NCBI GenBank assembly: GCA_003171255.1
Contig: PMYK01000047.1
Coordinates: 1,083 to 51,938, forward strand
Reading direction: 5' to 3'
Length of the DNA: 50,856 bases
Source: Chloroflexota bacterium
Lineage (GTDB): Bacteria; Chloroflexota; Limnocylindria; Limnocylindrales; CSP1-4
This document shows, piece by piece, positions 32,593-44,688 of the stretch (position 1 is the first letter of the stretch; each line of letters begins with the position of its first letter). Made by a program: the position numbers and the translations under genes. Under the pieces are notes generated by a model. The model was given only the letters and a program-made list of their open reading frames with translations. It was not told the DNA's origin and made no database searches.

Positions 32593-34470
32593 ATGGACGA
32601 TTCCGAGAGTCCTCAGCTGCTCTCCAACGGCGAGCTGGCGCGCATCTTCCACGAGATCGGCGACATGCTCGAGGTCAAGGGCGAGCTCGTCTACAAGACT
32701 GTGGCTTATCACAGGGCCGCCGACGCGATCGCCCACTCGCCGGTCGAGGTCGCGCGCGCCTACCTCGACGGCAATCCGCCACGCATCCCGGGCGTCGGCG
32801 AGGCCATTGCCAGGAAGATCGAAGAGCTGGCGCGGACGGGCCAACTCGCCTTCTACGAACGCCTGCGCGAAGAAGTGCCACCGAGTCTGGTGGCCTTGCT
32901 CGCGATCCCCGGTGTCGGGCCACGGACGGTGAAGCAGCTGCACGAGGAGATCGGCATCGAAACGCTGGACGACCTCCGGCGTGCGGCCGAGGCGGGCTTG
33001 CTGCGCGGGCTCAAGGGCATGTCCGAGAAGACAGAGGCTCAGGTTCTGGCGGGCATTCAGGCGCTGGAGTCGCGTCAGGATCGGATGCGCCTTGGCCAGG
33101 CCGAGGCCATCGTCGAGGTGCTGATTGGCGAACTCAGCGACGTTCCGGGCCTGCGGTCGATACTGCCGGCGGGCTCGTTTCGGCGCCGGCGCGAGACCAT
33201 CGGAGATCTGGATCTGCTGGCCGAGACCGACCGGCCGCTGGACCTGGTCGAACGGTTCACGACCCTTGGTTCGGTCGAGTCGGTGATCGCGAAGGGCCCG
33301 CATAAGGCTGCCGTCCGACTGCTCCGAGGCCCGCAGGTCGACCTCATGATCATGCCGCCCGGTGAGGCCGGCACCTACCTGATCCACTTCACCGGCTCGA
33401 AAGAGCACAACGTCCGACTGCGCGGCATGGCCCGCGACAAGGGCTGGAGCCTGTCCGAGAAGGGCTATCTGCGACTCGGCGCCGACGGCGAGCCGGCGGT
33501 GGGGGATTCGGGTCGGGCGGCCGAGCTGCGGACCTTCCCGACCGAGGCGGAGGCATACGCGTTCCTTGGGCTGCCATTCATCGAGCCTGAGTTGCGCGAG
33601 GACCGCGGCGAGATCGAGGCCGGGTTGGCGGGGACGCTGCCATCGCTGGTGACGCGGACCGACCTGCGCGGCGACTGCCACAGCCACTCCGACTGGTCGG
33701 ACGGTGTGCACGCGATCGAGACGATGGCGGACGCGGCACGCAGGCGAGGCTACTCGTACCTGGTGCTGAGCGACCACAGCGTCAGCCTGACGATCGCCCA
33801 TGGGCTCTCCGTCGAGAGGGTCGAGGCGCAGAGGGCGATCGTCGCGTCGCTGAATCGACGGTTCGCCGCGGAGGAGGCCGACGGCACCAGCCCGGACGGG
33901 ACATCGGCCGAGGGCTTTCGACTGCTGCACGGCTGCGAGCTGGAGGTTCGGGCGGACGCGACGCTCGACTACCCCGACGAGCTCCTCGCCCGCTACGACC
34001 TGGTCGTGGCCTCCGTCCATGTCGCTCGCCGGCAGTCGCGCGAGCAGCTGACCGCCCGGACCCTGGCTGCGATCCGGAACCCCAACGTGGACATCATTGC
34101 CCATCCGGCCGGCCGCTACATCGGCTCGCGCGACGACCTCGACCTCGACTGGGACGCGGTCTTCTCGGAGGCCGGTCGGTCGGGCACGGCCCTCGAGCTC
34201 AACGGCTCCGACGAGCGCCTGGACCTCTCGGACGTACGTGCGCGTCGAGCCTTGGAGTTCGGTTGCATCTTCACGATCGATTCCGACGCCCACCGAATCG
34301 AGGAGCTGGACAACCTGCGCTGGGGCGTGGCGATGGCTCGCCGAGCCTGGCTCACGCCCGACAGGATCATGAACACCCGCTCTCGCGCGGAGCTTCTGGA
34401 GTGGGTGAGGGGGAGACAGCCGCCCAGCGGGGCTGGCGCGCGACCGGAGATGCCAGGGCGATCGTGCTGA
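32593..34470 (+). CDS. polX: DNA polymerase/3'-5' exonuclease PolX
   Basis: Family X polymerase fused to a PHP exonuclease, active in gap-filling repair. It has 625 residues. The N-terminal 8-kDa-like domain has two helix-hairpin-helix motifs (IPGVGEAIARKI at 65-76, IPGVGPRTVKQL at 105-116). The palm holds GSFRRRRETIGDLDLL with Asp205 and Asp207, and Asp250 in QVDLMI. The PHP domain has DCHSHSDWSDG (361-371), SDHS, GCELEV, ASVHV, HPAGR and a final SDAH, so all metal-binding residues are present. Slightly longer than usual (about 570) because of a Gly-Ser insert after RRFAAEE and a C-terminal tail. Single gene. Confidence 0.94.
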   Translation: MDDSESPQLLSNGELARIFHEIGDMLEVKGELVYKTVAYHRAADAIAHSPVEVARAYLDGNPPRIPGVGEAIARKIEELARTGQLAFYERLREEVPPSLVALLAIPGVGPRTVKQLHEEIGIETLDDLRRAAEAGLLRGLKGMSEKTEAQVLAGIQALESRQDRMRLGQAEAIVEVLIGELSDVPGLRSILPAGSFRRRRETIGDLDLLAETDRPLDLVERFTTLGSVESVIAKGPHKAAVRLLRGPQVDLMIMPPGEAGTYLIHFTGSKEHNVRLRGMARDKGWSLSEKGYLRLGADGEPAVGDSGRAAELRTFPTEAEAYAFLGLPFIEPELREDRGEIEAGLAGTLPSLVTRTDLRGDCHSHSDWSDGVHAIETMADAARRRGYSYLVLSDHSVSLTIAHGLSVERVEAQRAIVASLNRRFAAEEADGTSPDGTSAEGFRLLHGCELEVRADATLDYPDELLARYDLVVASVHVARRQSREQLTARTLAAIRNPNVDIIAHPAGRYIGSRDDLDLDWDAVFSEAGRSGTALELNGSDERLDLSDVRARRALEFGCIFTIDSDAHRIEELDNLRWGVAMARRAWLTPDRIMNTRSRAELLEWVRGRQPPSGAGARPEMPGRSC

Positions 34471-36259: not shown

Positions 36260-36288
36260 TTGACAGGTGCGCGGCCGGATGCTAGAAA
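36260..36288 (+). promoter_or_regulatory. Sigma-70-type promoter of the TPR gene
   Basis: A perfect -35 box TTGACA (36260-36265), a spacer of exactly 17 bases, and a -10 box TAGAAA (36283-36288). Transcription would start near 36295, leaving a leader of about 110 bases. It is the best housekeeping-type promoter in the window. Confidence 0.75.
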
Positions 36289-36332
36289 GCTTGGTCCGGA
36301 CGGGTCGAGCCCGTAGAATTGGTATGCCCTCC

Positions 36333-36358
36333 GCGAGATGGCATCACCGCCATCTCGC
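36333..36358 (+). promoter_or_regulatory. 10-bp leader hairpin upstream of the TPR gene
   Basis: GCGAGATGGC and GCCATCTCGC form a perfect 10-bp stem around the loop ATCACC, inside the predicted 5' leader. A smaller 5-bp hairpin (ACGGG/CCCGT, 36299-36313) precedes it. The hairpin ends 46 bases before the start codon, without a T-run, so it is more likely a stability or binding element than a terminator. Confidence 0.6.
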
Positions 36359-36404
36359 CGCTCCAGCGATCGGCCTGGCGCAGCTAACGAAAGGACGCAT
36401 CTCC

Positions 36405-37256
36405 TTGGCTTTCCACGAGATCGAAAAGAGCGCCGGCGGCAATACCGTTCGGATCAAGCGCCAGCTGGTGGAGCAGGCGATCACGTACGCCGCCGCCGGT
36501 CGTTGGGCGGAGGCCGTCGAGATCAACCGCAAGATCCTGGACTTCGGCGCCGACGCCGAGGCGGAGAACCGCCTGGCGAAGTCCTTCTGGGAGCTCGGTG
36601 AGCTTGGCGAGGCGCGCGAGCACTACCAGGTCGCGCTTGCCCTGGATCCCACGAACCGCATCGCCGAGCGGAACATCGAGCGGCTGCGAGTTCTCATGAG
36701 TGAGGCCGGCGAGAAGACGGTGGCGGCGGAGAAGGCCGAAAAGGCGCCCGTGGCCATCTTCGTCGAGGAGACCGGCAAGACCGGCTTCGCGATGCTCACG
36801 GACCTGGCTTCGCCGCGGACCCTGGCCCACGTCAACCCCGGCGATGCCGTCGAGCTGATCCCGGAAGGCAACCGCCTCTTTGCCGAAGCCAACGGCACGC
36901 GGATCGGCATCGTCGAGCCTCGCGTAGCGGCCCGCCTGCTCAAGCTGCTCGCCGACGGCAACAAGTATTCGGCTGGGATCACGTCCCTCGGCGACCGCGA
37001 CGTCCGGATTGTCATCCGCGAGATCTTCCAGGACCCCCGAAACTACGGCAAGGTGAGCTTCCCGACCGCGGCCCGCTCCTCGGACCTCCGCCCCTACACC
37101 AAGGGCACGCTTCTCCGCGAGGAGGAGTTTATGGAGGAGGATCTCGAGGACGACGAGGAGGACGAGGAGATCGAGGACCTCGATCGCGTCCTGCCGACCG
37201 AAGTCACAGGCGAGGAAGCCTTCGAAGACGAGGTCGACGAGGTCGAAGAGCCGTAG
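36405..37256 (+). CDS. Tetratricopeptide-repeat protein with acidic C-terminus
   Basis: A 283-residue soluble protein. TTG 36405 is chosen: AAGGA lies about 10 bases upstream and the upstream frame overlaps promoter and hairpin. Residues about 18-95 form two TPR units (QAITYAAAGRWAEAVEINRK, LAKSFWELGELGEAREHYQV, each read as one helix pair). A compact domain follows (about 115-230; VRIVIREIFQDPRNYGKVSF). The last 40 residues are almost only Glu and Asp. Such tails often bind basic partners. A strong promoter suggests high, constant expression. Function unknown; likely an assembly or scaffold protein. Confidence 0.85.
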   Translation: MAFHEIEKSAGGNTVRIKRQLVEQAITYAAAGRWAEAVEINRKILDFGADAEAENRLAKSFWELGELGEAREHYQVALALDPTNRIAERNIERLRVLMSEAGEKTVAAEKAEKAPVAIFVEETGKTGFAMLTDLASPRTLAHVNPGDAVELIPEGNRLFAEANGTRIGIVEPRVAARLLKLLADGNKYSAGITSLGDRDVRIVIREIFQDPRNYGKVSFPTAARSSDLRPYTKGTLLREEEFMEEDLEDDEEDEEIEDLDRVLPTEVTGEEAFEDEVDEVEEP

Positions 37257-37257
37257 G

Positions 37258-38514
37258 TCAGTCGCCGTCGGCAGGTTCGCTGGCGGGCGCGGCTCGAACC
37301 GGCGCCAGGCCGATCAGCAGGGCCAGTAGAAGCGCGCCGTAGCTCAGCGACCCAACGGCAGCCAGAACGTTGGTAAGGGCAAGGTCGTCGGATCGCAGCC
37401 AGGCCACCGAGGTCATCAGCCAATCCGTCAGCCCGAGAATCGGGTAGTCCAGCACGTGGTATAGCTGAAGCCCAAACAGCCCAGCGGTACCCGCCAGGAC
37501 GAGTATCCATGCTTGGCCGCCGCCTCGGCGCAGGCATGTGAAGGCCGTCCAGAAGATCGCCATCCACGCGAACATGTCAAGCGACTGCATGACCGCCTGG
37601 TAGAGAAGCCTCGGCAGGTACTCAAACGCAGGGCTATAGGCCATGGAGCGGCCGATGGCCGAGTCAACCTGGACGTACAAGACGGCTCCCACGGCCACCG
37701 CGACGACGAACCACCGGGGCCGCGGAGCCACACCGGCGCGAGCGGCCAGGCCGATCGCCAGTGCCAACCAGCCGAACGCGGTAAGCGTCCAGTTGGTCTC
37801 CAGGAACTGAGGCGTCGCAAGGGCCAGCGCGACGGCCCCGATCAGGAGCCAGCGAGAGGATCGGTCGCTCACCGGGTAGCGAAGCGCGACAACGGCGGCC
37901 AGAGCGGCAGGCAGGAACATCGAGATGGAGTAGTAGGACAGCATCGGTGGGTGCACGTAGGGCTGCGTCACCATGTAGCTGACCGGGAGGATCGCCAGCA
38001 GGAGAGCCAGCCGAGGTACCTTCCGCAGACGGCGCGGCAGCGGAACCACGTGCGCGACAACGGCGCGGCGGCCGACGGCGATGCGACGTATCCCTGCTTG
38101 GATGGGCCCCATGGATAGGCTGACCCCGGCCAGCACGCTCAGCACCAGGATGACGACCAGCCCGAGAGGGTCGATCAGCCAGGGCGATGAAATCGGACCG
38201 GAGTCCGGGGCAACGATCGGGTTGAGTCCGGTCGGCGCGCCCAGGCTGTAGCTCCCCGTGCTGGCGCTCGTCACGACGAACAGGAACAGTCCGGCCCACG
38301 CCAGGACGACCAACAGCGACGCGGCCGCCGAAACGAACTGGGGCACTCGCGACAGCGTGCGTCTCGGGCGGGCCGCCTCTGCCCGGAGATCAGCCGAGAT
38401 CCGGAGCCGCGCCCCAATCGGCATCGGGGCGGGTTCGAGGCTACGAAGCCAGCCGGAGAGCTCGGCCTCCAGTCGGGCTTCGGGCGCGTCCAGGCGGCCG
38501 AACCTCTCGTTCAT
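37258..38514 (-). CDS. Polytopic membrane protein, probable anti-sigma factor
   Basis: A 418-residue protein whose ATG overlaps the stop of the ECF sigma gene by 4 bases (ATGA). The N-terminal 55 residues are soluble (MNERFGRLDAPEARLEAELS, then RLRISADLRAEA) and about ten hydrophobic segments follow. This layout, cytosolic N-terminus plus membrane part encoded with the sigma gene, is that of ECF anti-sigma factors. The HxxxCxxC zinc motif of the common ZAS type is absent, so it belongs to another class, and the membrane part is unusually large. It may sense an envelope signal directly. Confidence 0.7.
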   Translation of the reverse strand: MNERFGRLDAPEARLEAELSGWLRSLEPAPMPIGARLRISADLRAEAARPRRTLSRVPQFVSAAASLLVVLAWAGLFLFVVTSASTGSYSLGAPTGLNPIVAPDSGPISSPWLIDPLGLVVILVLSVLAGVSLSMGPIQAGIRRIAVGRRAVVAHVVPLPRRLRKVPRLALLLAILPVSYMVTQPYVHPPMLSYYSISMFLPAALAAVVALRYPVSDRSSRWLLIGAVALALATPQFLETNWTLTAFGWLALAIGLAARAGVAPRPRWFVVAVAVGAVLYVQVDSAIGRSMAYSPAFEYLPRLLYQAVMQSLDMFAWMAIFWTAFTCLRRGGGQAWILVLAGTAGLFGLQLYHVLDYPILGLTDWLMTSVAWLRSDDLALTNVLAAVGSLSYGALLLALLIGLAPVRAAPASEPADGD

Positions 38515-39122
38515 CGATCGTCCTCCTCTCGCCAGCCGGCCCGTTCGAGCTCGGCGCGCAACCGCTTCAGGCCGGTGTGGAGCCGCGACTTGACCGTGCC
38601 CAGCGGGATGCCCAGTAGTTCGGCGATCGACTCGAGCGGCAGATCGCGATGGAAGCGCAACGCGACTACCAGCTGGAGGTTGGGGTCGAGCTTCGGGAAG
38701 GCGCTGGCGATGGCGTCGCGCTGCGCCACGAGACCGAAGTCGTCGCGGCGTGCCAACTCGAACTCGGCCGACAACGCCGCCTCGCGGACGTGCCCGCGCC
38801 GGCGCGAGCGGAGCCGATCGCGGCACAGATTGAGGACTATCCGCCCGAACCACGCGTCGAAGTGCTCCGGGTCGCGCAGCGAGCCGAACTTGCGCCAGGC
38901 GAGCAGGACTGCGTCATGCACGACATCCTGGGCCTCGATCGGGTCGCGCAGAACCACGGCGGCCAATCGGTAGGAATCGTCGAGGCAGCGATCGCTCAGA
39001 GATTCGAACGCATCCAGCGTCCGAGCGTCGCTCGCTTCCTCGGCGGCCAGAACATCGACCACTTCGTGTCCCACTCGATGAATTGTCGGGTTCGGCGGGC
39101 TCCACCGCTCACCTGTTGACAC
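38511..39122 (-). CDS. ECF-family RNA polymerase sigma factor
   Basis: A 203-residue sigma-70-family factor. Region 2 spans about residues 40-110 (YRLAAVVLRDPIEAQDVVHD, AWFGRIVLNLCRDRLRSRRR); region 4 spans about 135-190 (LPLESIAELLGIPLGTVKSR, a helix-turn-helix that reads the -35 box). Region 3 is absent, as in all ECF factors. The GTG start at 39122 has no ribosome site but lies 5 bases after a CGTC -10 of ECF type, consistent with leaderless, self-activated transcription. The next gene, overlapping by 4 bases, is the presumed anti-sigma. Confidence 0.93.
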   Translation of the reverse strand: MSTGERWSPPNPTIHRVGHEVVDVLAAEEASDARTLDAFESLSDRCLDDSYRLAAVVLRDPIEAQDVVHDAVLLAWRKFGSLRDPEHFDAWFGRIVLNLCRDRLRSRRRGHVREAALSAEFELARRDDFGLVAQRDAIASAFPKLDPNLQLVVALRFHRDLPLESIAELLGIPLGTVKSRLHTGLKRLRAELERAGWREEDDR

Positions 39123-39152: not shown

Positions 39153-39178
39153 GCGCCGCTGTCGGCGGGTCCGTCTGT

Positions 39179-39184
39179 CACAAT
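39179..39184 (+). promoter_or_regulatory. -10 element of the pseudo-methylase gene (leaderless type)
   Basis: CACAAT lies exactly 6 bases before ATG 39191. It faces away from the ECF promoter only 27 bases away, so the two could interfere. Confidence 0.45.
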
Positions 39185-39190
39185 TGAGGC

Positions 39191-42067
39191 ATGGTCGGGC
39201 GCGCTGCCACCAACCCCGAGCCAGTGCTCGCCAGCATTCCGTCGCTGCCCGCCTTCGAGCGGCTTGCCCCGCCGGCGTCGGCGGCCGAGCTGGTGGCCGC
39301 GATCGAGGCCTGGACCAAGCCCGGTGAGGTCGTCCTCGACCTGAACGGCCGTGGCGGTTGGGTCGCTCGGGCGGCGATCGCGGAGCAGCGTCGCGCGGCC
39401 GACCTCGAAACGTGGCCCCTGACCCGGCTTCTCGCCGACGTGGTGCTGCGTCCACCGGGGATCCGCCAGATCGACGCCGCTGCCGCGGCCATCGCCAGCG
39501 CGAAGATCGCCGGCTCGACGGTCCGACGCACCATCGACGCCCTTTACGCCAGCACGTGCCCCCGCTGCGGCCGGCCGGTCATCCTCGAGTCGATGGTCTG
39601 GCAGCCCGTGGCCTCGCCCGCGAAGTCGGACGGCACCCCTGCGCCAAAGAGTCGCGCCCGAAGTCGCGCCAAGTCGCAGGCCATCTCCACGAACCTCGGC
39701 GCGCTGCCGGAGCTGTCATTCGGTCCGGATGAATCGCTCCGGGCAATCGCCCGCGAGTATCGCTGCGCCCAATGCCACGAACAGATGGGTGGCTCTGAGT
39801 TGAGAGCCGCGGACCCGACGCACGGTGACGTGCATCTGGCCGAGTCGGTTCCGACCAGCGGCGACGTCCGTGAGGCGATGCGGAGGCGCTTTCCGGCGCC
39901 ACGACCGACCCACCCGCTGGTGGATCAGCTGATCGACCTCCACACGCCCCGACAGCTCATGGGGTTGCAGGCCATCCTGACGCGGATCGACGCCGAGGAC
40001 CGCGTCGGGGCACTCACTGCGGCACTGCGACTCGCCTTTCTCCACGCCGTGATCCTGGCGAGCCGCCTCAACGTGTCTCACGGCAAGCCCGCGCCGCTGC
40101 GCATATCGAACGGCGTCCTCAAGGTTCCCGCCGCCAAGGAGTGGCGCGAGCTGAACCCCTGGCTCGCCTTCGAAGGCGGGTTGAGGCTCGTCAAGACATT
40201 CGTCGGGCGAATCGAGGCGGGGACGCCCCGCGCCGCCGTCGCTCGCCTCGGTTTGGACATTGCCGCGCTGGAGGGTGGCACGTCCAACGTCACGGTAGGG
40301 GAGGCGACACCGGCGTCCCTACGCCGCCTGGGACTCCACGGCGAGCGGATGTCCCATTCCGGATCGACGTCGCGCGTCCGCCTCGTATTGGGTCAGGCGC
40401 CGCTGGGCTGGACTCCGGAACGGATGGCGGCCTCATACCACGGCACCGGCTGGATCTTTGGGGCGGCGGCCGTCTCGATGTTGCCGTACGACTCGCTGTT
40501 CCGGCCGGCCACGAAGTCGACCCAGATCGAAGAGGCAACGGATCTCGCTCGCTCCATAGGTCGGATGCTGGCTATCGCCACGCCCGCCCTGGCCCAGACC
40601 GGCCGGGCCGTGGTGCTCCTGGACGACGCCGAGCCGGCTACCCTGGTCGCGGCCGCGCTCGGTGGCGCCGCCGCGGGCTGCCGCCTCGTCGACGCGCGAC
40701 TTCACCGGGGCGGTGACAACAGCGCGGGCATCGTCGTCTACGTTCCGCCGACCGGCGTCATGTCTCCCGGTCCGCGGACCCGCGCCAACCGACCCCTGCC
40801 GCCTGTCGCGGGCGGAGCGGGCGACCCGGGCACCATCCGCGGTCGGGGCGTCTTCACCGGACCCGAGAGGCTCGACGACGGTCCCTTCAGGGCCAGCATG
40901 GCGGCCTCGACGGTGACCGAAACGGCCGTCGAGCTGCTCAAGGCTCGCGGTGAGCCGGTCTCGTTCGACCAGTTGCTGGGCGACCTCCTGATAGGACTCG
41001 ATCGATCCGGCCAGCTGGCGAGGCTGGCCAGGACGCTTCGACCCGAGCGAGCCGACGACGGCTGGGCGGCCTGGGTCGAGACCGACGGCGTCGGAGCCGG
41101 CGCGTGGGCCGGGACACCGGCGGCCGCGGGGACTTCTGCCGCCGGAGCTTCGACCGGCGACAGCGGAGATGAGGCCGATCTGGGTCCCGTGGCCCGGCTG
41201 ATCGAGGTGATCCGCAGCGAGCTCGACCGACCGAACAACCGCCGTCTCCGCCAGATCGAGCCCGGTCAGTACTGGCTGGCATCTGAGGAGGACCGCAGCG
41301 TGGCCGCGCCGCCACTCGCCGACAGGGTGGAGTGGGCCGTCTTCTCGCTGCTCTCGTCGGCCGGGCACCTCACCGAGCGGGCGGCCTTCGATCGGACCGC
41401 GGCGTTGTTCAAGGATCAGGATGCCCCGGACGGAGCGCTGATCGAGGCCTGCCTGGCCAGCTACGTCGCGCCCACCAGCACACCCGAGGCTCTCTCCGGT
41501 TTCGAGCGTCTCGAGACTCGCACCGCCGACCACGACAGGGTCGTCGCCATGCTCGCCGATGTCGGCCATCGACTTGGCATGAGGGTCTGGATCGGCAAGC
41601 GCCAGCAGACGCGGCGAGTCGACGGTCGGCCGCTGGCGGCCTGGATGGACGAGGCCGAGCGGGAGGTCCATCTGCCGCTGATTGCGTGGGCTCCCGAAGG
41701 CGAGCTCGATCGAGTCGACTGCGCCTGGTATGTCCGGCGGAAGGCGACCTTCCTCTTCGAGGTCGAATGGACGGCCATGCTGGGCGAGCCGGTGCTGGTG
41801 CACCACGCCCGCTATCCGATCGACGACAAGGTCGTCCGCTTCCTGGTCATCCCGCCGGAGAGGGCGGACCTGGTGAAGGTGAAGCTCGCGCGCTCGCCTC
41901 TGCTGCGCAAGGCCGTCGAGGCGCGCAACTGGCATTTCCTCAAGTGGAATCACCTGGCCGAGTTCGCCGCGCGCCCGGAGGCGACGCTGGCCGACCTTGA
42001 GCCGTACCTGGGTCTCGAGGCGGCGGCCGACTCATTTGGCGAGCAACTGCCATTGTTCGGGGCCTGA
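39191..42067 (+). CDS. Zn-ribbon DNA-methylase-like protein with C-terminal PD-(D/E)XK-like domain
   Basis: A 958-residue protein. Residues 1-120 resemble the SAM-binding part of COG1743/DUF1156-type DNA methylases, but motif I reads VVLDLNGRGGWVARAAI instead of DPFxGxG. Residues 121-200 hold a split zinc ribbon (Cys123, Cys126, Cys192, Cys195). HTPRQLMGLQAIL (about 253) is another family marker. The second Rossmann half ends with GRAVVLLDDAEPATLVAAAL. I find no DPPY-type catalytic motif, so the methylase is probably inactive. Winged-helix-like regions follow (about 580-790). At the end, Asp843 in RVDCAWY and Glu857/Glu859 in LFEVEW fit a PD-(D/E)XK nuclease core of E-x-E type. Whether it cuts DNA is unknown. 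Confidence 0.6.
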   Translation: MVGRAATNPEPVLASIPSLPAFERLAPPASAAELVAAIEAWTKPGEVVLDLNGRGGWVARAAIAEQRRAADLETWPLTRLLADVVLRPPGIRQIDAAAAAIASAKIAGSTVRRTIDALYASTCPRCGRPVILESMVWQPVASPAKSDGTPAPKSRARSRAKSQAISTNLGALPELSFGPDESLRAIAREYRCAQCHEQMGGSELRAADPTHGDVHLAESVPTSGDVREAMRRRFPAPRPTHPLVDQLIDLHTPRQLMGLQAILTRIDAEDRVGALTAALRLAFLHAVILASRLNVSHGKPAPLRISNGVLKVPAAKEWRELNPWLAFEGGLRLVKTFVGRIEAGTPRAAVARLGLDIAALEGGTSNVTVGEATPASLRRLGLHGERMSHSGSTSRVRLVLGQAPLGWTPERMAASYHGTGWIFGAAAVSMLPYDSLFRPATKSTQIEEATDLARSIGRMLAIATPALAQTGRAVVLLDDAEPATLVAAALGGAAAGCRLVDARLHRGGDNSAGIVVYVPPTGVMSPGPRTRANRPLPPVAGGAGDPGTIRGRGVFTGPERLDDGPFRASMAASTVTETAVELLKARGEPVSFDQLLGDLLIGLDRSGQLARLARTLRPERADDGWAAWVETDGVGAGAWAGTPAAAGTSAAGASTGDSGDEADLGPVARLIEVIRSELDRPNNRRLRQIEPGQYWLASEEDRSVAAPPLADRVEWAVFSLLSSAGHLTERAAFDRTAALFKDQDAPDGALIEACLASYVAPTSTPEALSGFERLETRTADHDRVVAMLADVGHRLGMRVWIGKRQQTRRVDGRPLAAWMDEAEREVHLPLIAWAPEGELDRVDCAWYVRRKATFLFEVEWTAMLGEPVLVHHARYPIDDKVVRFLVIPPERADLVKVKLARSPLLRKAVEARNWHFLKWNHLAEFAARPEATLADLEPYLGLEAAADSFGEQLPLFGA

Positions 42068-42165: not shown

Positions 42166-43866
42166 GTGGGCGACGTCAGGAACGCAGCCGACGCCGTGAA
42201 CGCGCTGTCAGATCGATTCTGGGACGGCATCCTGGATCTCTCGCCGGTCACGGCCACCGTGCTCGGCTATGAGCAGGGCATGGATCGGCTCGACGACCCG
42301 GGACCCGAAGGTCGGCAGCGGGCGCGAACCCTCTACCGCGAGACGCTCGCCGGAGCCGACGCGATCGAGGCCGACGCTGCCGGGGCGGCCGGCCTGCCCA
42401 CCGAGGAGCGGATCACGCTCGACATCCTGCGGGTCATCTGCAACGTCGAGCTCGAGCAGCAGGACCAGCGTTTCGATCGGCTCAAAGTCGTCGACCAGAT
42501 GGACGGCCCGCAGACCATGCTCCCGCTGCTGGCTGCGTTCCAACCGACGGAGGCGCCCGACCAGTTCGAAGCCTTCATGGCCCGGCTGGCCGACTACCCC
42601 CGCTTCATGGCCGCCAACGCCGACCTGGTTCGCGAAGGTCTGGCGAGCGGCCTGACCGCGGCTCGGATCGTGACTGAGCGCGTCATCAGCCAGATGGAGC
42701 GGCTGCTGGCGATTCCGGACGAGCAGTCGCCGATCGTGACCGTGCTCAAGCTCCCCAAACCTTCAGACCGCGACCGTGTCGTCGAGGCCATCGGCAAGTA
42801 CGTCCGCCCGGCCGATCGCGGCTTCCTGGAGGCGTTCCTGGGCAAGTACCGCGAGGCCTCGCGCGAGGAGCCGGGACTGTGCTCCGCGCCGGATGGGGAT
42901 CGCCTGTACCGGACCCAGATCCGGGCCTGGACCTCGCTGGACATCGATGCCGGCAAGCTGCATCGCATCGGGCTCGAGGAGCTGGCCTCGATCGAGGGAG
43001 AGCGGCGGACAATCGCCCACGACCTCGGTTTCGGCGATGACACGACGGCCGCCCGAACCGCCCTGCGGGCCGACCCGGCTGCCGTGCCCGCTTCGATCGA
43101 CGAGTTGCTCGACCGTGCCCGCGGCCAGATCGAGCGCGCCCTCGCTGCCGCCCCTGGCTACTTCGGCCGGCTGCCCCATGCCGGCTGCGAGGTTCGGCCG
43201 GTCGAGCCGTACAAGGAAGCCGATGCCCCGGCCGCCTACTATTACCCGCCGTCGGTCGATGGCAGCCGGCCGGGCGTTTACTACGTCAATTCCTACGACC
43301 TGCCGAGCCGCAGCTACATTGGCCTGGCCAGCATGAGCTTCCACGAGGCCGTTCCCGGTCACCATTTCCAGATCGCACTGCAGACCGAGCATCCGAGCCT
43401 CAACGCCTTCCGACGGATGGGCTCACGAATGGCGGGTATGGCCTACGTCGAAGGCTGGGGCCTCTACTCGGAGCGTCTGGCGGACGAGATGGGCCTCTTC
43501 CTCAACCAGTCCGAGCGGTTCGGGATGCTGGACGGCCAGTCGCACCGAGCCGCGCGACTCGTCGTCGACACGGGCATACACGCGTTCCACTGGACCCGCC
43601 AGCAGGGCGTGGCGCAACTCCTGGAGGCTGGCTTGTCCGATACGGACGCGGCGATCGAGACGGACCGCTATATCACCTGGCCCGCCCAGGCCCTGACCTA
43701 CAAGGTGGGCCAGCGCGAGATCGAGCGATTGCGACGCGAGGTCTCAGCCGCCCTGGGCCCGGCCTTCGACCTCCGAGCCTTCCACGACGCCGTCCTCGGC
43801 CACGGCACGCTGCCCCTCGCAACCCTCGCCAAAGAGCTCCCGACCTGGCTCGGAGTTGCCGGCTAG
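42166..43866 (+). CDS. DUF885-family metallo-hydrolase
   Basis: A 566-residue protein of the DUF885 family, predicted zinc-dependent peptidases related to M32-type carboxypeptidases. The metal motif HEAVPGHH is at residues 393-400, followed by a glutamate-rich helix with YVEGWGLYSERLADEMG that supplies the third ligand. Family landmarks YYPPSVDGSRPGVYYVN and YITWPAQALTYKVGQ are intact. Cytosolic, since no signal peptide is seen. GTG 42166 has GGAGG 7 bases upstream. Single gene; substrate unknown. Confidence 0.9.
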   Translation: MGDVRNAADAVNALSDRFWDGILDLSPVTATVLGYEQGMDRLDDPGPEGRQRARTLYRETLAGADAIEADAAGAAGLPTEERITLDILRVICNVELEQQDQRFDRLKVVDQMDGPQTMLPLLAAFQPTEAPDQFEAFMARLADYPRFMAANADLVREGLASGLTAARIVTERVISQMERLLAIPDEQSPIVTVLKLPKPSDRDRVVEAIGKYVRPADRGFLEAFLGKYREASREEPGLCSAPDGDRLYRTQIRAWTSLDIDAGKLHRIGLEELASIEGERRTIAHDLGFGDDTTAARTALRADPAAVPASIDELLDRARGQIERALAAAPGYFGRLPHAGCEVRPVEPYKEADAPAAYYYPPSVDGSRPGVYYVNSYDLPSRSYIGLASMSFHEAVPGHHFQIALQTEHPSLNAFRRMGSRMAGMAYVEGWGLYSERLADEMGLFLNQSERFGMLDGQSHRAARLVVDTGIHAFHWTRQQGVAQLLEAGLSDTDAAIETDRYITWPAQALTYKVGQREIERLRREVSAALGPAFDLRAFHDAVLGHGTLPLATLAKELPTWLGVAG

Positions 43867-43995: not shown

Positions 43996-44688
43996 TCAGC
44001 GCTTGCCGGCCTGGGTGCGAAGCAGCTTGGCCAGTGCGGCGTGGCCGTTCTCATCCGCGAGGTCGACGGCCGTCTTGCCGTCGTCGCTTGCCCGAGTCGG
44101 GTCGGCCCCGCGCAGCACCAGCATGTCGACGATGGCCTCGTCGCCGTTGCGGGCGGCAGAGTGCAGGGGCGTCCAGCCACCGTGCCGGACCGCGTTGGGC
44201 GACGCGCCCAGGCTCAGCAGAAGGCTGGCCGTGTCGCGATGCTTCGCCGCCACCGCGCTGTGGAGCGGCGTGACGCGCGACTCGTTCAGGGCGACGGCGT
44301 TGGGGTCTGCGCCGCAGCCCAGGAGCAGCCGTGCCACTTCCAGTTGTCCGTAGTAAGCCGCGAGGTGGAGGGCCGTGTAACCGTCGGGCCCCCGGTCGTC
44401 GACTGCGGCACGATCGCTGGAGAGCAGCGTCCGGATGACCCCGACATTGCCGACTGTCGCGGCGTCGAACATATCGAGGCCGTCGGGCGTGCCCACAGCT
44501 AGGGCGGCGAGGCGCGCCGCCATCTTGGTATGGCTCGAGTAGGCGGCCGTCAGAACCGGCGAGAACCCGGCGGCGTCACGGGCATGCAGCAGCTCCGCGT
44601 GGGCGCCGATCGCGCTGTCGACGTCCACGTCGTTGCCCTTGCGGATCGCCTCGAAGAACGCGGCGACGATCGGCCCCTGGTCGGTCAT
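43996..44688 (-). CDS. Ankyrin-repeat protein
   Basis: A 230-residue soluble protein made of about six ankyrin repeats: the clear ones contain GYTALHLAAYYGQLEVARLL, TPLHSAVAAKHRDTASLLL, GWTPLHSAARNGDEAIVDML and KTAVDLADENGHAALAKLL. The first two repeats are degenerate. No catalytic domain or signal peptide. Its ATG overlaps the stop of the aminotransferase gene by 4 bases, so the two are translated together. It may bind that enzyme or a partner protein; that link rests only on the coupling. Confidence 0.9.
   Translation of the reverse strand: MTDQGPIVAAFFEAIRKGNDVDVDSAIGAHAELLHARDAAGFSPVLTAAYSSHTKMAARLAALAVGTPDGLDMFDAATVGNVGVIRTLLSSDRAAVDDRGPDGYTALHLAAYYGQLEVARLLLGCGADPNAVALNESRVTPLHSAVAAKHRDTASLLLSLGASPNAVRHGGWTPLHSAARNGDEAIVDMLVLRGADPTRASDDGKTAVDLADENGHAALAKLLRTQAGKR

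What the first reader, a model, noticed from the sequence alone, without database searches (positions are those of the whole stretch)
39191..42067. Decayed DNA methylase fused to a PD-(D/E)XK-like domain
The N-terminal 560 residues follow the layout of large Zn-ribbon DNA methylases, yet motif I is degenerate (DLNGRGG) and no DPPY-type motif is visible. The C-terminus adds a nuclease-like core (D843, E857, E859) after winged-helix segments. A protein that may still bind DNA or SAM, cannot methylate, and could cut or hold DNA does not fit a standard restriction-modification gene. It stands alone with its own promoter. It could be a one-protein defence factor, a DNA-repair scaffold, or a domesticated methylase.
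Basis: partly seen in the sequence, partly recalled or inferred. Interest (0 to 1): 0.75.

Follow-up and report, generated by a model that had tools for sequence, protein, structure and literature searches.

The report
Conserved dead DNA-methylase/nuclease fusion
A Chloroflexota bacterium carries a gene, present in most genomes of its class, that began as a DNA-methylating enzyme joined to a DNA-cutting domain, has lost the methylating motif in every relative examined, and has been kept and reshaped for some other, still unknown task.

Summary
The ORF (39191-42067 +, 958 aa) is real and under purifying selection (dN/dS 0.12-0.21). It is not a lone decaying methylase. It belongs to an unnamed family: the window has no Pfam or NCBIfam match above cut-off. 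The family is found in 151 of 177 genomes of its class, 50 of 53 good ones, and in a second class (101 of 249 at E<=1e-15, 90 of them at E<=1e-48).

In 144 aligned family rows (143 distinct) the four zinc-ribbon cysteines are invariant, and none has the methylation motif [DNS]PP[YFW], which 4 of 4 true methylases have. The window's odd motif I is not random decay: D, R, G and W of D-x-x-G-R-G-G-W are fixed in 62 of 62 f1-type rows. The C-terminus is predicted to fold as PD-(D/E)XK. D843/E857/E859 (or D for E) stand in 70 of 71 rows of the window's alignment; the full triad is in 0 of 56 rows of the second-class type.

Best reading: a domesticated restriction-modification-like fusion, now a chromosomal, probably nucleic-acid-binding pseudo-methyltransferase whose nuclease half may still work in the window's lineage. 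A stand-alone defence role is not supported.

The parts
39191..42067 (+). The gene: pseudo-methyltransferase / Zn ribbon / winged helix / PD-(D/E)XK fusion, 958 aa
   Evidence: homologues
39227..39544 (+). N-terminal part of the methyltransferase core (aa 13-118)
   Evidence: profile match to RsrI; AF2 model; dN/dS 0.05-0.17
39338..39361 (+). Altered motif I, D50-L-N-G-R-G-G-W57
   Evidence: D50, R54, G55, W57 in 62 of 62 f1-type rows that have letters there; 3 more rows are gapped
39557..39775 (+). Zinc ribbon C123-x2-C126 ... C192-x2-C195
   Evidence: CCCC in 144 of 144 family rows
40391..40402 (+). Lost motif IV (G401-Q-A-P404) where DPPY would be
40892..41278 (+). First winged-helix-like segment (aa 568-696), interrupted by a low-confidence linker (633-661)
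   Evidence: AF2 secondary structure and pLDDT; inference
41315..41500 (+). Second winged-helix-like domain (aa 709-770)
   Evidence: AF2 secondary structure; inference
41510..41944 (+). PD-(D/E)XK-type domain (aa 774-918) with D843 (41717-41719), E857 (41759-41761), E859 (41765-41767)
39176..39184 (+). Conserved box TGTCACAAT just before the ATG, a possible -10 element
   Evidence: function is inference
36267..37256 (+). TPR protein with acidic tail, upstream on the same strand throughout the class loci examined
32593..34470 (+). DNA polymerase X (HHH, pol-beta thumb, PHP), conserved further upstream
   Evidence: 48 of 55 class loci
42166..43866 (+). DUF885 gene, conserved downstream neighbour
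   Evidence: 52 of 69 class loci
38511..39122 (-). ECF sigma factor, divergent; a relative at this place in few loci (3 of 55)

Best explanation
The gene is a domesticated descendant of a one-chain methylase-nuclease (restriction-modification-like) protein. Shown: it is present in most genomes of its class, under purifying selection in its genus, related to Zn-ribbon N6/N4 DNA methylases, and without the standard methylation motif IV in every relative aligned. Shown for most of the window's class: the PD-(D/E)XK acidic triad is kept. Inferred: the former methylase half no longer transfers methyl groups and serves as a nucleic-acid-binding module (zinc ribbon, altered former SAM loop, winged helices); the PD-(D/E)XK half still binds metal and possibly cuts or holds DNA in the window's lineage, but has become structural in the second class. 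It acts in chromosomal housekeeping (repair, replication or chromosome upkeep), perhaps with the TPR protein encoded upstream.
For: Present in 151 of 177 class genomes and 50 of 53 good ones; 101 of 249 genomes of a second class at E<=1e-15, 90 of them at E<=1e-48. 0 of 144 rows with [DNS]PP[YFW] against 4 of 4 true methylases; Zn cysteines 144 of 144. Former motif I rebuilt and conserved (R54 and W57 in 62 of 62 f1-type rows). dN/dS 0.12-0.21 for the gene and 0.10-0.15 for the PD-(D/E)XK domain in six comparisons. In the gene tree all family rows lie on one branch apart from four true methylases; 13 of 16 labels with more than one row are clades, and the other three mix labels by my naming. 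No plasmid or phage hit (L158 in plasmids). Ordinary neighbours. TPR gene upstream in 55 of 55 distinct class loci; in two of the f4-type loci viewed (L149, L155) its stop codon ends one base before the ATG.
Against: No direct evidence of nucleic-acid binding or of any housekeeping role. No neighbour was found shared between the classes; the three loci outside the class with enough upstream DNA lack the TPR gene (L202-L204), and no f10 genome is among the TPR matches listed although f10 has the family. At most 101 of 249 second-class genomes have the family, so it is not essential across the phylum. SAM binding is not excluded: GRG survives in a loop one residue short. The motif IV stretch keeps [NS]PP without the aromatic residue in nine rows, a partial N4-methylase-like pattern.
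Confidence: 0.5

Rival explanations
1. Modification-dependent (type IV-like) restriction: the dead methylase half and winged helices read a base modification and the PD-(D/E)XK half cuts.
For: Winged helices joined to nucleases are known 6mA readers (PMC11037411, abstract and section 28 read). The acidic triad is kept in 70 of 71 rows of the window's alignment.
Against: In most genomes of its class, no match in plasmid and phage records, ordinary neighbours, full triad in 0 of 56 rows of the second-class type. f1 genomes often carry a likely active SPPY methylase, whose marks a self-cutting reader would have to tolerate.
Confidence: 0.12
2. Non-catalytic partner of an active methylase, as METTL14 is to METTL3 (recalled): it binds substrate while another enzyme methylates.
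For: The window's genome and 88 other class genomes carry a relative of an apparently intact SPPY-type N6_N4 methylase of about 500 aa.
Against: All 89 genomes with that methylase at E<=1e-20 are f1, yet f2-f5 have the pseudo-methylase. In the window's genome the two genes are on different contigs (C10, C28).
Confidence: 0.1
3. A still active methyltransferase with an unusual catalytic motif and another substrate (RNA or protein).
For: Motif I is strongly conserved in f1-type rows; DPPR survives in three rows (f66, f66b, f103), RPPY in f15, TPPY in f108, QPPF in L108, [NS]PP without the aromatic residue in nine; f4 keeps DPW-x-G-x-G.
Against: No motif-IV replacement is shared across the family; in f2 neither motif I nor motif IV is recognisable.
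Confidence: 0.13
4. A decaying relic with no function.
For: Both catalytic centres drift in parts of the family.
Against: Most listed matches have no stop inside; dN/dS well below 1; C123, C126, W137, C192, C195, R254 and E320 in 107 of 107 rows.
Confidence: 0.02

Closest known systems
N6/N4 DNA methylases of PF01555 with cysteine pairs between motif I and motif IV (L174 626 aa, L175 570 aa here)
   Same: Order motif I - cysteine pairs - motif IV; L174 aligns with the family over the core, including the four cysteines; L175 was read but not aligned
   Different: They have DPPF/DPPY and a standard motif I and no winged-helix/PD-(D/E)XK tail; the family has no standard motif IV and, outside f4-type rows, no standard motif I
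EVE-domain proteins with a FEVEHTTS-type PD-(D/E)XK-like domain (L176, L177)
   Same: C-terminal domain homologous to that of L177 (hhalign probability 91.5); same D-x13-E-x-E pattern
   Different: N-terminal EVE domain (PF01878: L176 above, L177 below cut-off) instead of a methylase; distribution not tested
Single-chain restriction-modification enzymes (type IIG/IIC; recalled)
   Same: Methylase and PD-(D/E)XK nuclease in one chain
   Different: Methylase motif IV lost; nuclease C-terminal after winged helices; no sign of mobility
Winged-helix fusion 6mA-dependent endonucleases such as DpnI (PMC11037411, abstract and one section)
   Same: Winged helix next to a PD-(D/E)XK domain
   Different: Named PD-(D/E)XK-wH there, so the nuclease comes first; no methylase relic is mentioned in what I read
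Pseudo-methyltransferases METTL14 and DNMT3L (recalled; METTL14 also in a search listing)
   Same: Methylase fold kept without catalysis
   Different: Eukaryotic, partners of active paralogues; no nuclease domain (recalled)
MADS mad2 methylase (PADLOC)
   Same: 3 of 18 members match mad2 (best E 9e-7)
   Different: The window protein itself does not; I did not search for the other MADS genes

Membership tests
Amino-DNA methyltransferase (N6/N4) | Motif IV [DNS]PP[YFW] | tested here: not met
   GQAP in the window; 0 of 144 family rows
Amino-DNA methyltransferase (N6/N4) | Motif I DP[FW]xGxG | tested here: not met
   DLNGRGG in the window; 10 of 144 rows, all f4 or f4-type, have it
Amino-DNA methyltransferase (N6/N4) | Profile match to PF01555 at its cut-off | tested here: not met
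   Window: PF01555 not listed up to E 1; 2 of 16 relatives scanned reach it
Amino-DNA methyltransferase (N6/N4) | Methyltransferase fold | tested here: inconclusive
   Confident AF2 model; Foldseek top hits mostly methyltransferases, none below E 0.001 in PDB, one viral N4 methylase at 6.3e-4
PD-(D/E)XK superfamily | Core alpha-beta-beta-beta-alpha-beta | tested here: met
   AF2 models, pLDDT 86.6 and 90.1; predicted, not solved
PD-(D/E)XK superfamily | D ... (D/E)-x-K motif | tested here: inconclusive
   D843 ... E857-V-E859: Lys replaced by Glu, as in L176/L177; D, E/D, E/D in 70 of 71 rows of A2
PD-(D/E)XK superfamily | Similarity to a known member | tested here: inconclusive
   hhalign 91.5 to L177, itself assigned by pattern; Foldseek hits YaeQ, EcoO109I, Card1, MspJI all with E above 0.5, mixed with other folds lower down
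Known anti-phage defence systems | PADLOC match and defence neighbourhood | tested here: not met
   Window: only MTase_II over 66 residues, E 2.3e-4; members also mad2 (3 of 18), REase_II (2, best 0.043), JetA (1, 8e-4); neighbours ordinary by Pfam
Type IV (modification-dependent) restriction | Cleavage of modified DNA | not testable with these tools
   Needs an assay
Single-chain restriction-modification enzyme | Active methylase protecting self DNA | tested here: not met
   By sequence only: motif IV lost

The most novel reading that the evidence does not exclude
Chloroflexota tamed a one-chain restriction-modification protein before at least two of its classes split: the methylase motif was lost early or repeatedly and in several ways, in the window's family the SAM loop was rebuilt into a new conserved motif (GRGGW), the nuclease was kept in one class and erased in another, and the remnant became a near-core chromosomal nucleic-acid-binding protein of unknown but selected function.
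Probability: 0.4. Interest if true: 0.78.

Novelty: new variant of a known kind. Interest (0 to 1): 0.6.

Why it matters
Pseudoenzymes from methylases are familiar in eukaryotes; I recall no bacterial one derived from a DNA methylase that is near-core in a class. The family offers a graded series (true methylases, partly kept motifs, fully lost) in which the loss of two catalytic centres can be read and tested, and it points to a protein of about 750-1000 aa in Chloroflexota for which the Pfam and NCBIfam copies searched here showed no model of its own.

Tried and rejected
Rejected: (a) Mobile or defence gene: tblastn of the window protein in plasmids and phages found nothing, of L158 in plasmids nothing. 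(b) Zinc-finger, VapC and NfuA matches of the first scans: all below cut-off. (c) Spread beyond the phylum: in 296 genomes of the phylum of G437 (a MAG titled Solirubrobacteraceae; the tool names no phylum) 12 passed E 1e-10, two of them below 1e-90 and one at 3e-32. The G437 contig is 4 kb and carries the same TPR gene upstream (L136), so mis-binned Chloroflexota DNA is likelier there; the others were not looked into. (d) A regulon sharing the box: TGTCACAATN{4,10}ATG has one hit, this gene, in the own genome. (e) Literature: five searches bearing on novelty showed no title or abstract that I recognised as this family; two searches listed 20 of 114 and 12 of 34 papers; only open-licence PMC papers are held. 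Searches were side searches; one paper was opened (PMC11037411).

Limits: rows were chosen by me. A2 uses 70 of 77 loci plus the window; seven loci were left out as incomplete or holding X. The 144 rows are these 71, 36 further rows and 37; one gene is in twice (L155 and L186). Of the weak second-class matches only two (G840, G843) and a second hit of G769 were looked at; all three are true methylases. The alignment of the shortened C-terminus in the second class is the least certain part. The dS values of distant pairs are near saturation, and two of six values for the linker could not be computed. The tree carries no support values here and its four outgroup methylases did not form one clade. 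Counts hold repeats; one search replaces them, and f2 is not in its count. Phyla other than Chloroflexota and that of G437 were not searched, apart from the named collection.

Full report
Observation. The ORF at 39191-42067 + is open over 958 codons and present once in its genome of 55 contigs and 2.56 Mb. The window comes from a Chloroflexota genome by its relatives: of 77 loci fetched from named genomes 72 are titled Chloroflexi or Chloroflexota, two Candidatus Limnocylindrales, one Anaerolinea, one Solirubrobacteraceae and one Thermoleophilia.

Not a lone relic. A search of 61 genomes, the own one included, gave 59 with a match. Over the whole class 151 of 177 genomes match at E<=1e-15, and 50 of 53 of those at least 90 percent complete and at most 5 percent contaminated; this undercounts family f2, several of whose members matched but not at this threshold. 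A near-full-length second copy is listed for one genome, G1030. In the phylum sample 144 of 400 matched at E<=1e-3; four weak ones that I read are two ordinary methylases and two EVE-nuclease-like proteins. In the class of G302, 101 of 249 matched at E<=1e-15, 90 of them at E<=1e-48. No named family covers it: Pfam and NCBIfam give nothing above cut-off for the window; of 16 relatives scanned with Pfam two reach the PF01555 cut-off, L172 and, just at it, L171; of nine scanned with NCBIfam none matches.

Methylase half. Alignment with true methylases places motif I at residues 50-57 and motif IV near 398-404. The four true methylases have DPPF or DPPY. In 144 family rows none has [DNS]PP[YFW]; three keep DPP followed by R, f15, f108 and L108 keep PP plus an aromatic residue without the acid, and nine keep [NS]PP without the aromatic. 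Losses therefore look repeated and different in kind. The four cysteines are kept in 144 of 144, and W137, R254 and E320 in 107 of 107. In f1-type rows, the window's type, the former SAM loop is D-x-x-G-R-G-G-W: D50, R54, G55 and W57 in 62 of 62 rows with letters there; its mean column entropy is 0.59 against 1.47 overall, and 4 percent of windows of that length are as conserved. The motif IV stretch (17 percent) and motif II (35 percent) are not unusual. So the loop is reshaped and kept while the catalytic corner is let go. In f2, of the same order, motif I is not recognisable. Whether the loop still binds SAM is open.

C-terminal half. AlphaFold2 on 71 sequences gives pLDDT 86.6 and pTM 0.84; the last 189 residues alone give pLDDT 90.1. 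The order of elements is that of PD-(D/E)XK proteins, with D843 before the second core strand and E857/E859 at the end of the third. Foldseek finds no significant PDB match; its top hits for the tail are YaeQ, EcoO109I, Card1 and MspJI, with Mus81 and XPF further down among unrelated folds; that these share the fold is recalled. The tail matches an EVE-domain protein with the FEVEHTTS pattern (hhalign 91.5). The triad D, E/D, E/D is kept in 70 of 71 A2 rows (exactly D-E-E in 68), with K also allowed at the third place in 74 of 84 rows of the class and 3 of 4 rows of f15/f23/f33/f7, but in 0 of 56 remaining rows. The f3 and f5 rows have Q, K or H at 857, and the f2 rows lack an acid at 859.

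Selection and descent. dN/dS (NG86) against six relatives of the genus is 0.12-0.21 for the gene and 0.10-0.15 for the PD-(D/E)XK domain. The linker 633-663 is loosest (0.22-0.78 where it could be computed, four of six); the first winged helix reaches 0.50 in one comparison and the Zn-ribbon segment, which holds a disordered insert, 0.39. A FastTree tree of 89 rows puts all family rows on one branch apart from four true methylases; 13 of 16 labels with several rows are clades. No named species tree was available, so vertical descent is an inference.

Neighbours. No neighbour was found shared between classes. Counting each gene once, 55 of 55 class loci with at least 7 kb upstream have a TPR protein gene with acidic tail upstream on the same strand within 8 kb, 48 of 55 DNA polymerase X, and 52 of 69 with at least 2.5 kb downstream have DUF885 next; the three loci outside the class lack the TPR gene (domains). 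In L149 and L155 the TPR stop codon ends one base before the ATG; in five other loci viewed the gap is larger. The TPR protein is itself widespread (152 of 201), but no f10 genome is among the matches listed. In the window an ECF sigma factor gene on the other strand lies between the TPR gene and this gene; a relative of it stands there in 3 of 55 loci. The box TGnCACAAT stands just before the ATG in all 11 sequences, exactly in 11 of 36 of a wider set, and by eye as CACAAT or GACAAT in 20 of 36; the five f4-type loci in that set lack it.

A possible companion. The window's genome has a second, apparently intact methylase with SPPY on another contig; 89 of 177 class genomes have it at E<=1e-20, all f1. 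A METTL14-like pairing is therefore possible in f1 only.

Verdict. The stronger finding is that this state is old, conserved and selected. I put most weight on a domesticated, non-methylating, nucleic-acid-binding chromosomal protein; the nuclease half may be live in this lineage. Function remains inferred.

Noticed in passing
G000:C28:13131-14735 (L296:1132-2736 -): Second, apparently intact solitary N6_N4 methylase (motif I DPFSGRGTT, motif IV SPPY) in the window's genome; in 89 of 177 class genomes, all f1.
   Followed up: partly
window 36267-37256 +: TPR protein with a conserved unknown domain and acidic tail; its unknown domain matches in 152 of 201 phylum genomes, Pfam shows only TPR.
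   Followed up: partly
window 37258-39122 -: ECF sigma factor and a probable membrane companion gene without Pfam match placed between the TPR gene and this gene; sigma relatives there in 3 of 55 loci.
   Followed up: partly
window 39176-39184: Conserved TGTCACAAT box right before the ATG, unique with that spacing in the own genome; hints at a leaderless transcript.
   Followed up: partly
L176:1299-2432 and L177:1281-2423: EVE-type domain joined to a FEVEHTTS-like PD-(D/E)XK-like domain for which Pfam gave no match.
   Followed up: no
L136, L139: Contigs filed under Solirubrobacteraceae and Thermoleophilia that carry this family; L136 also has the same TPR gene and is likely mis-binned Chloroflexota DNA.
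   Followed up: partly
window 43996-44688 -: Ankyrin-repeat protein next to a class-V aminotransferase gene.
   Followed up: no
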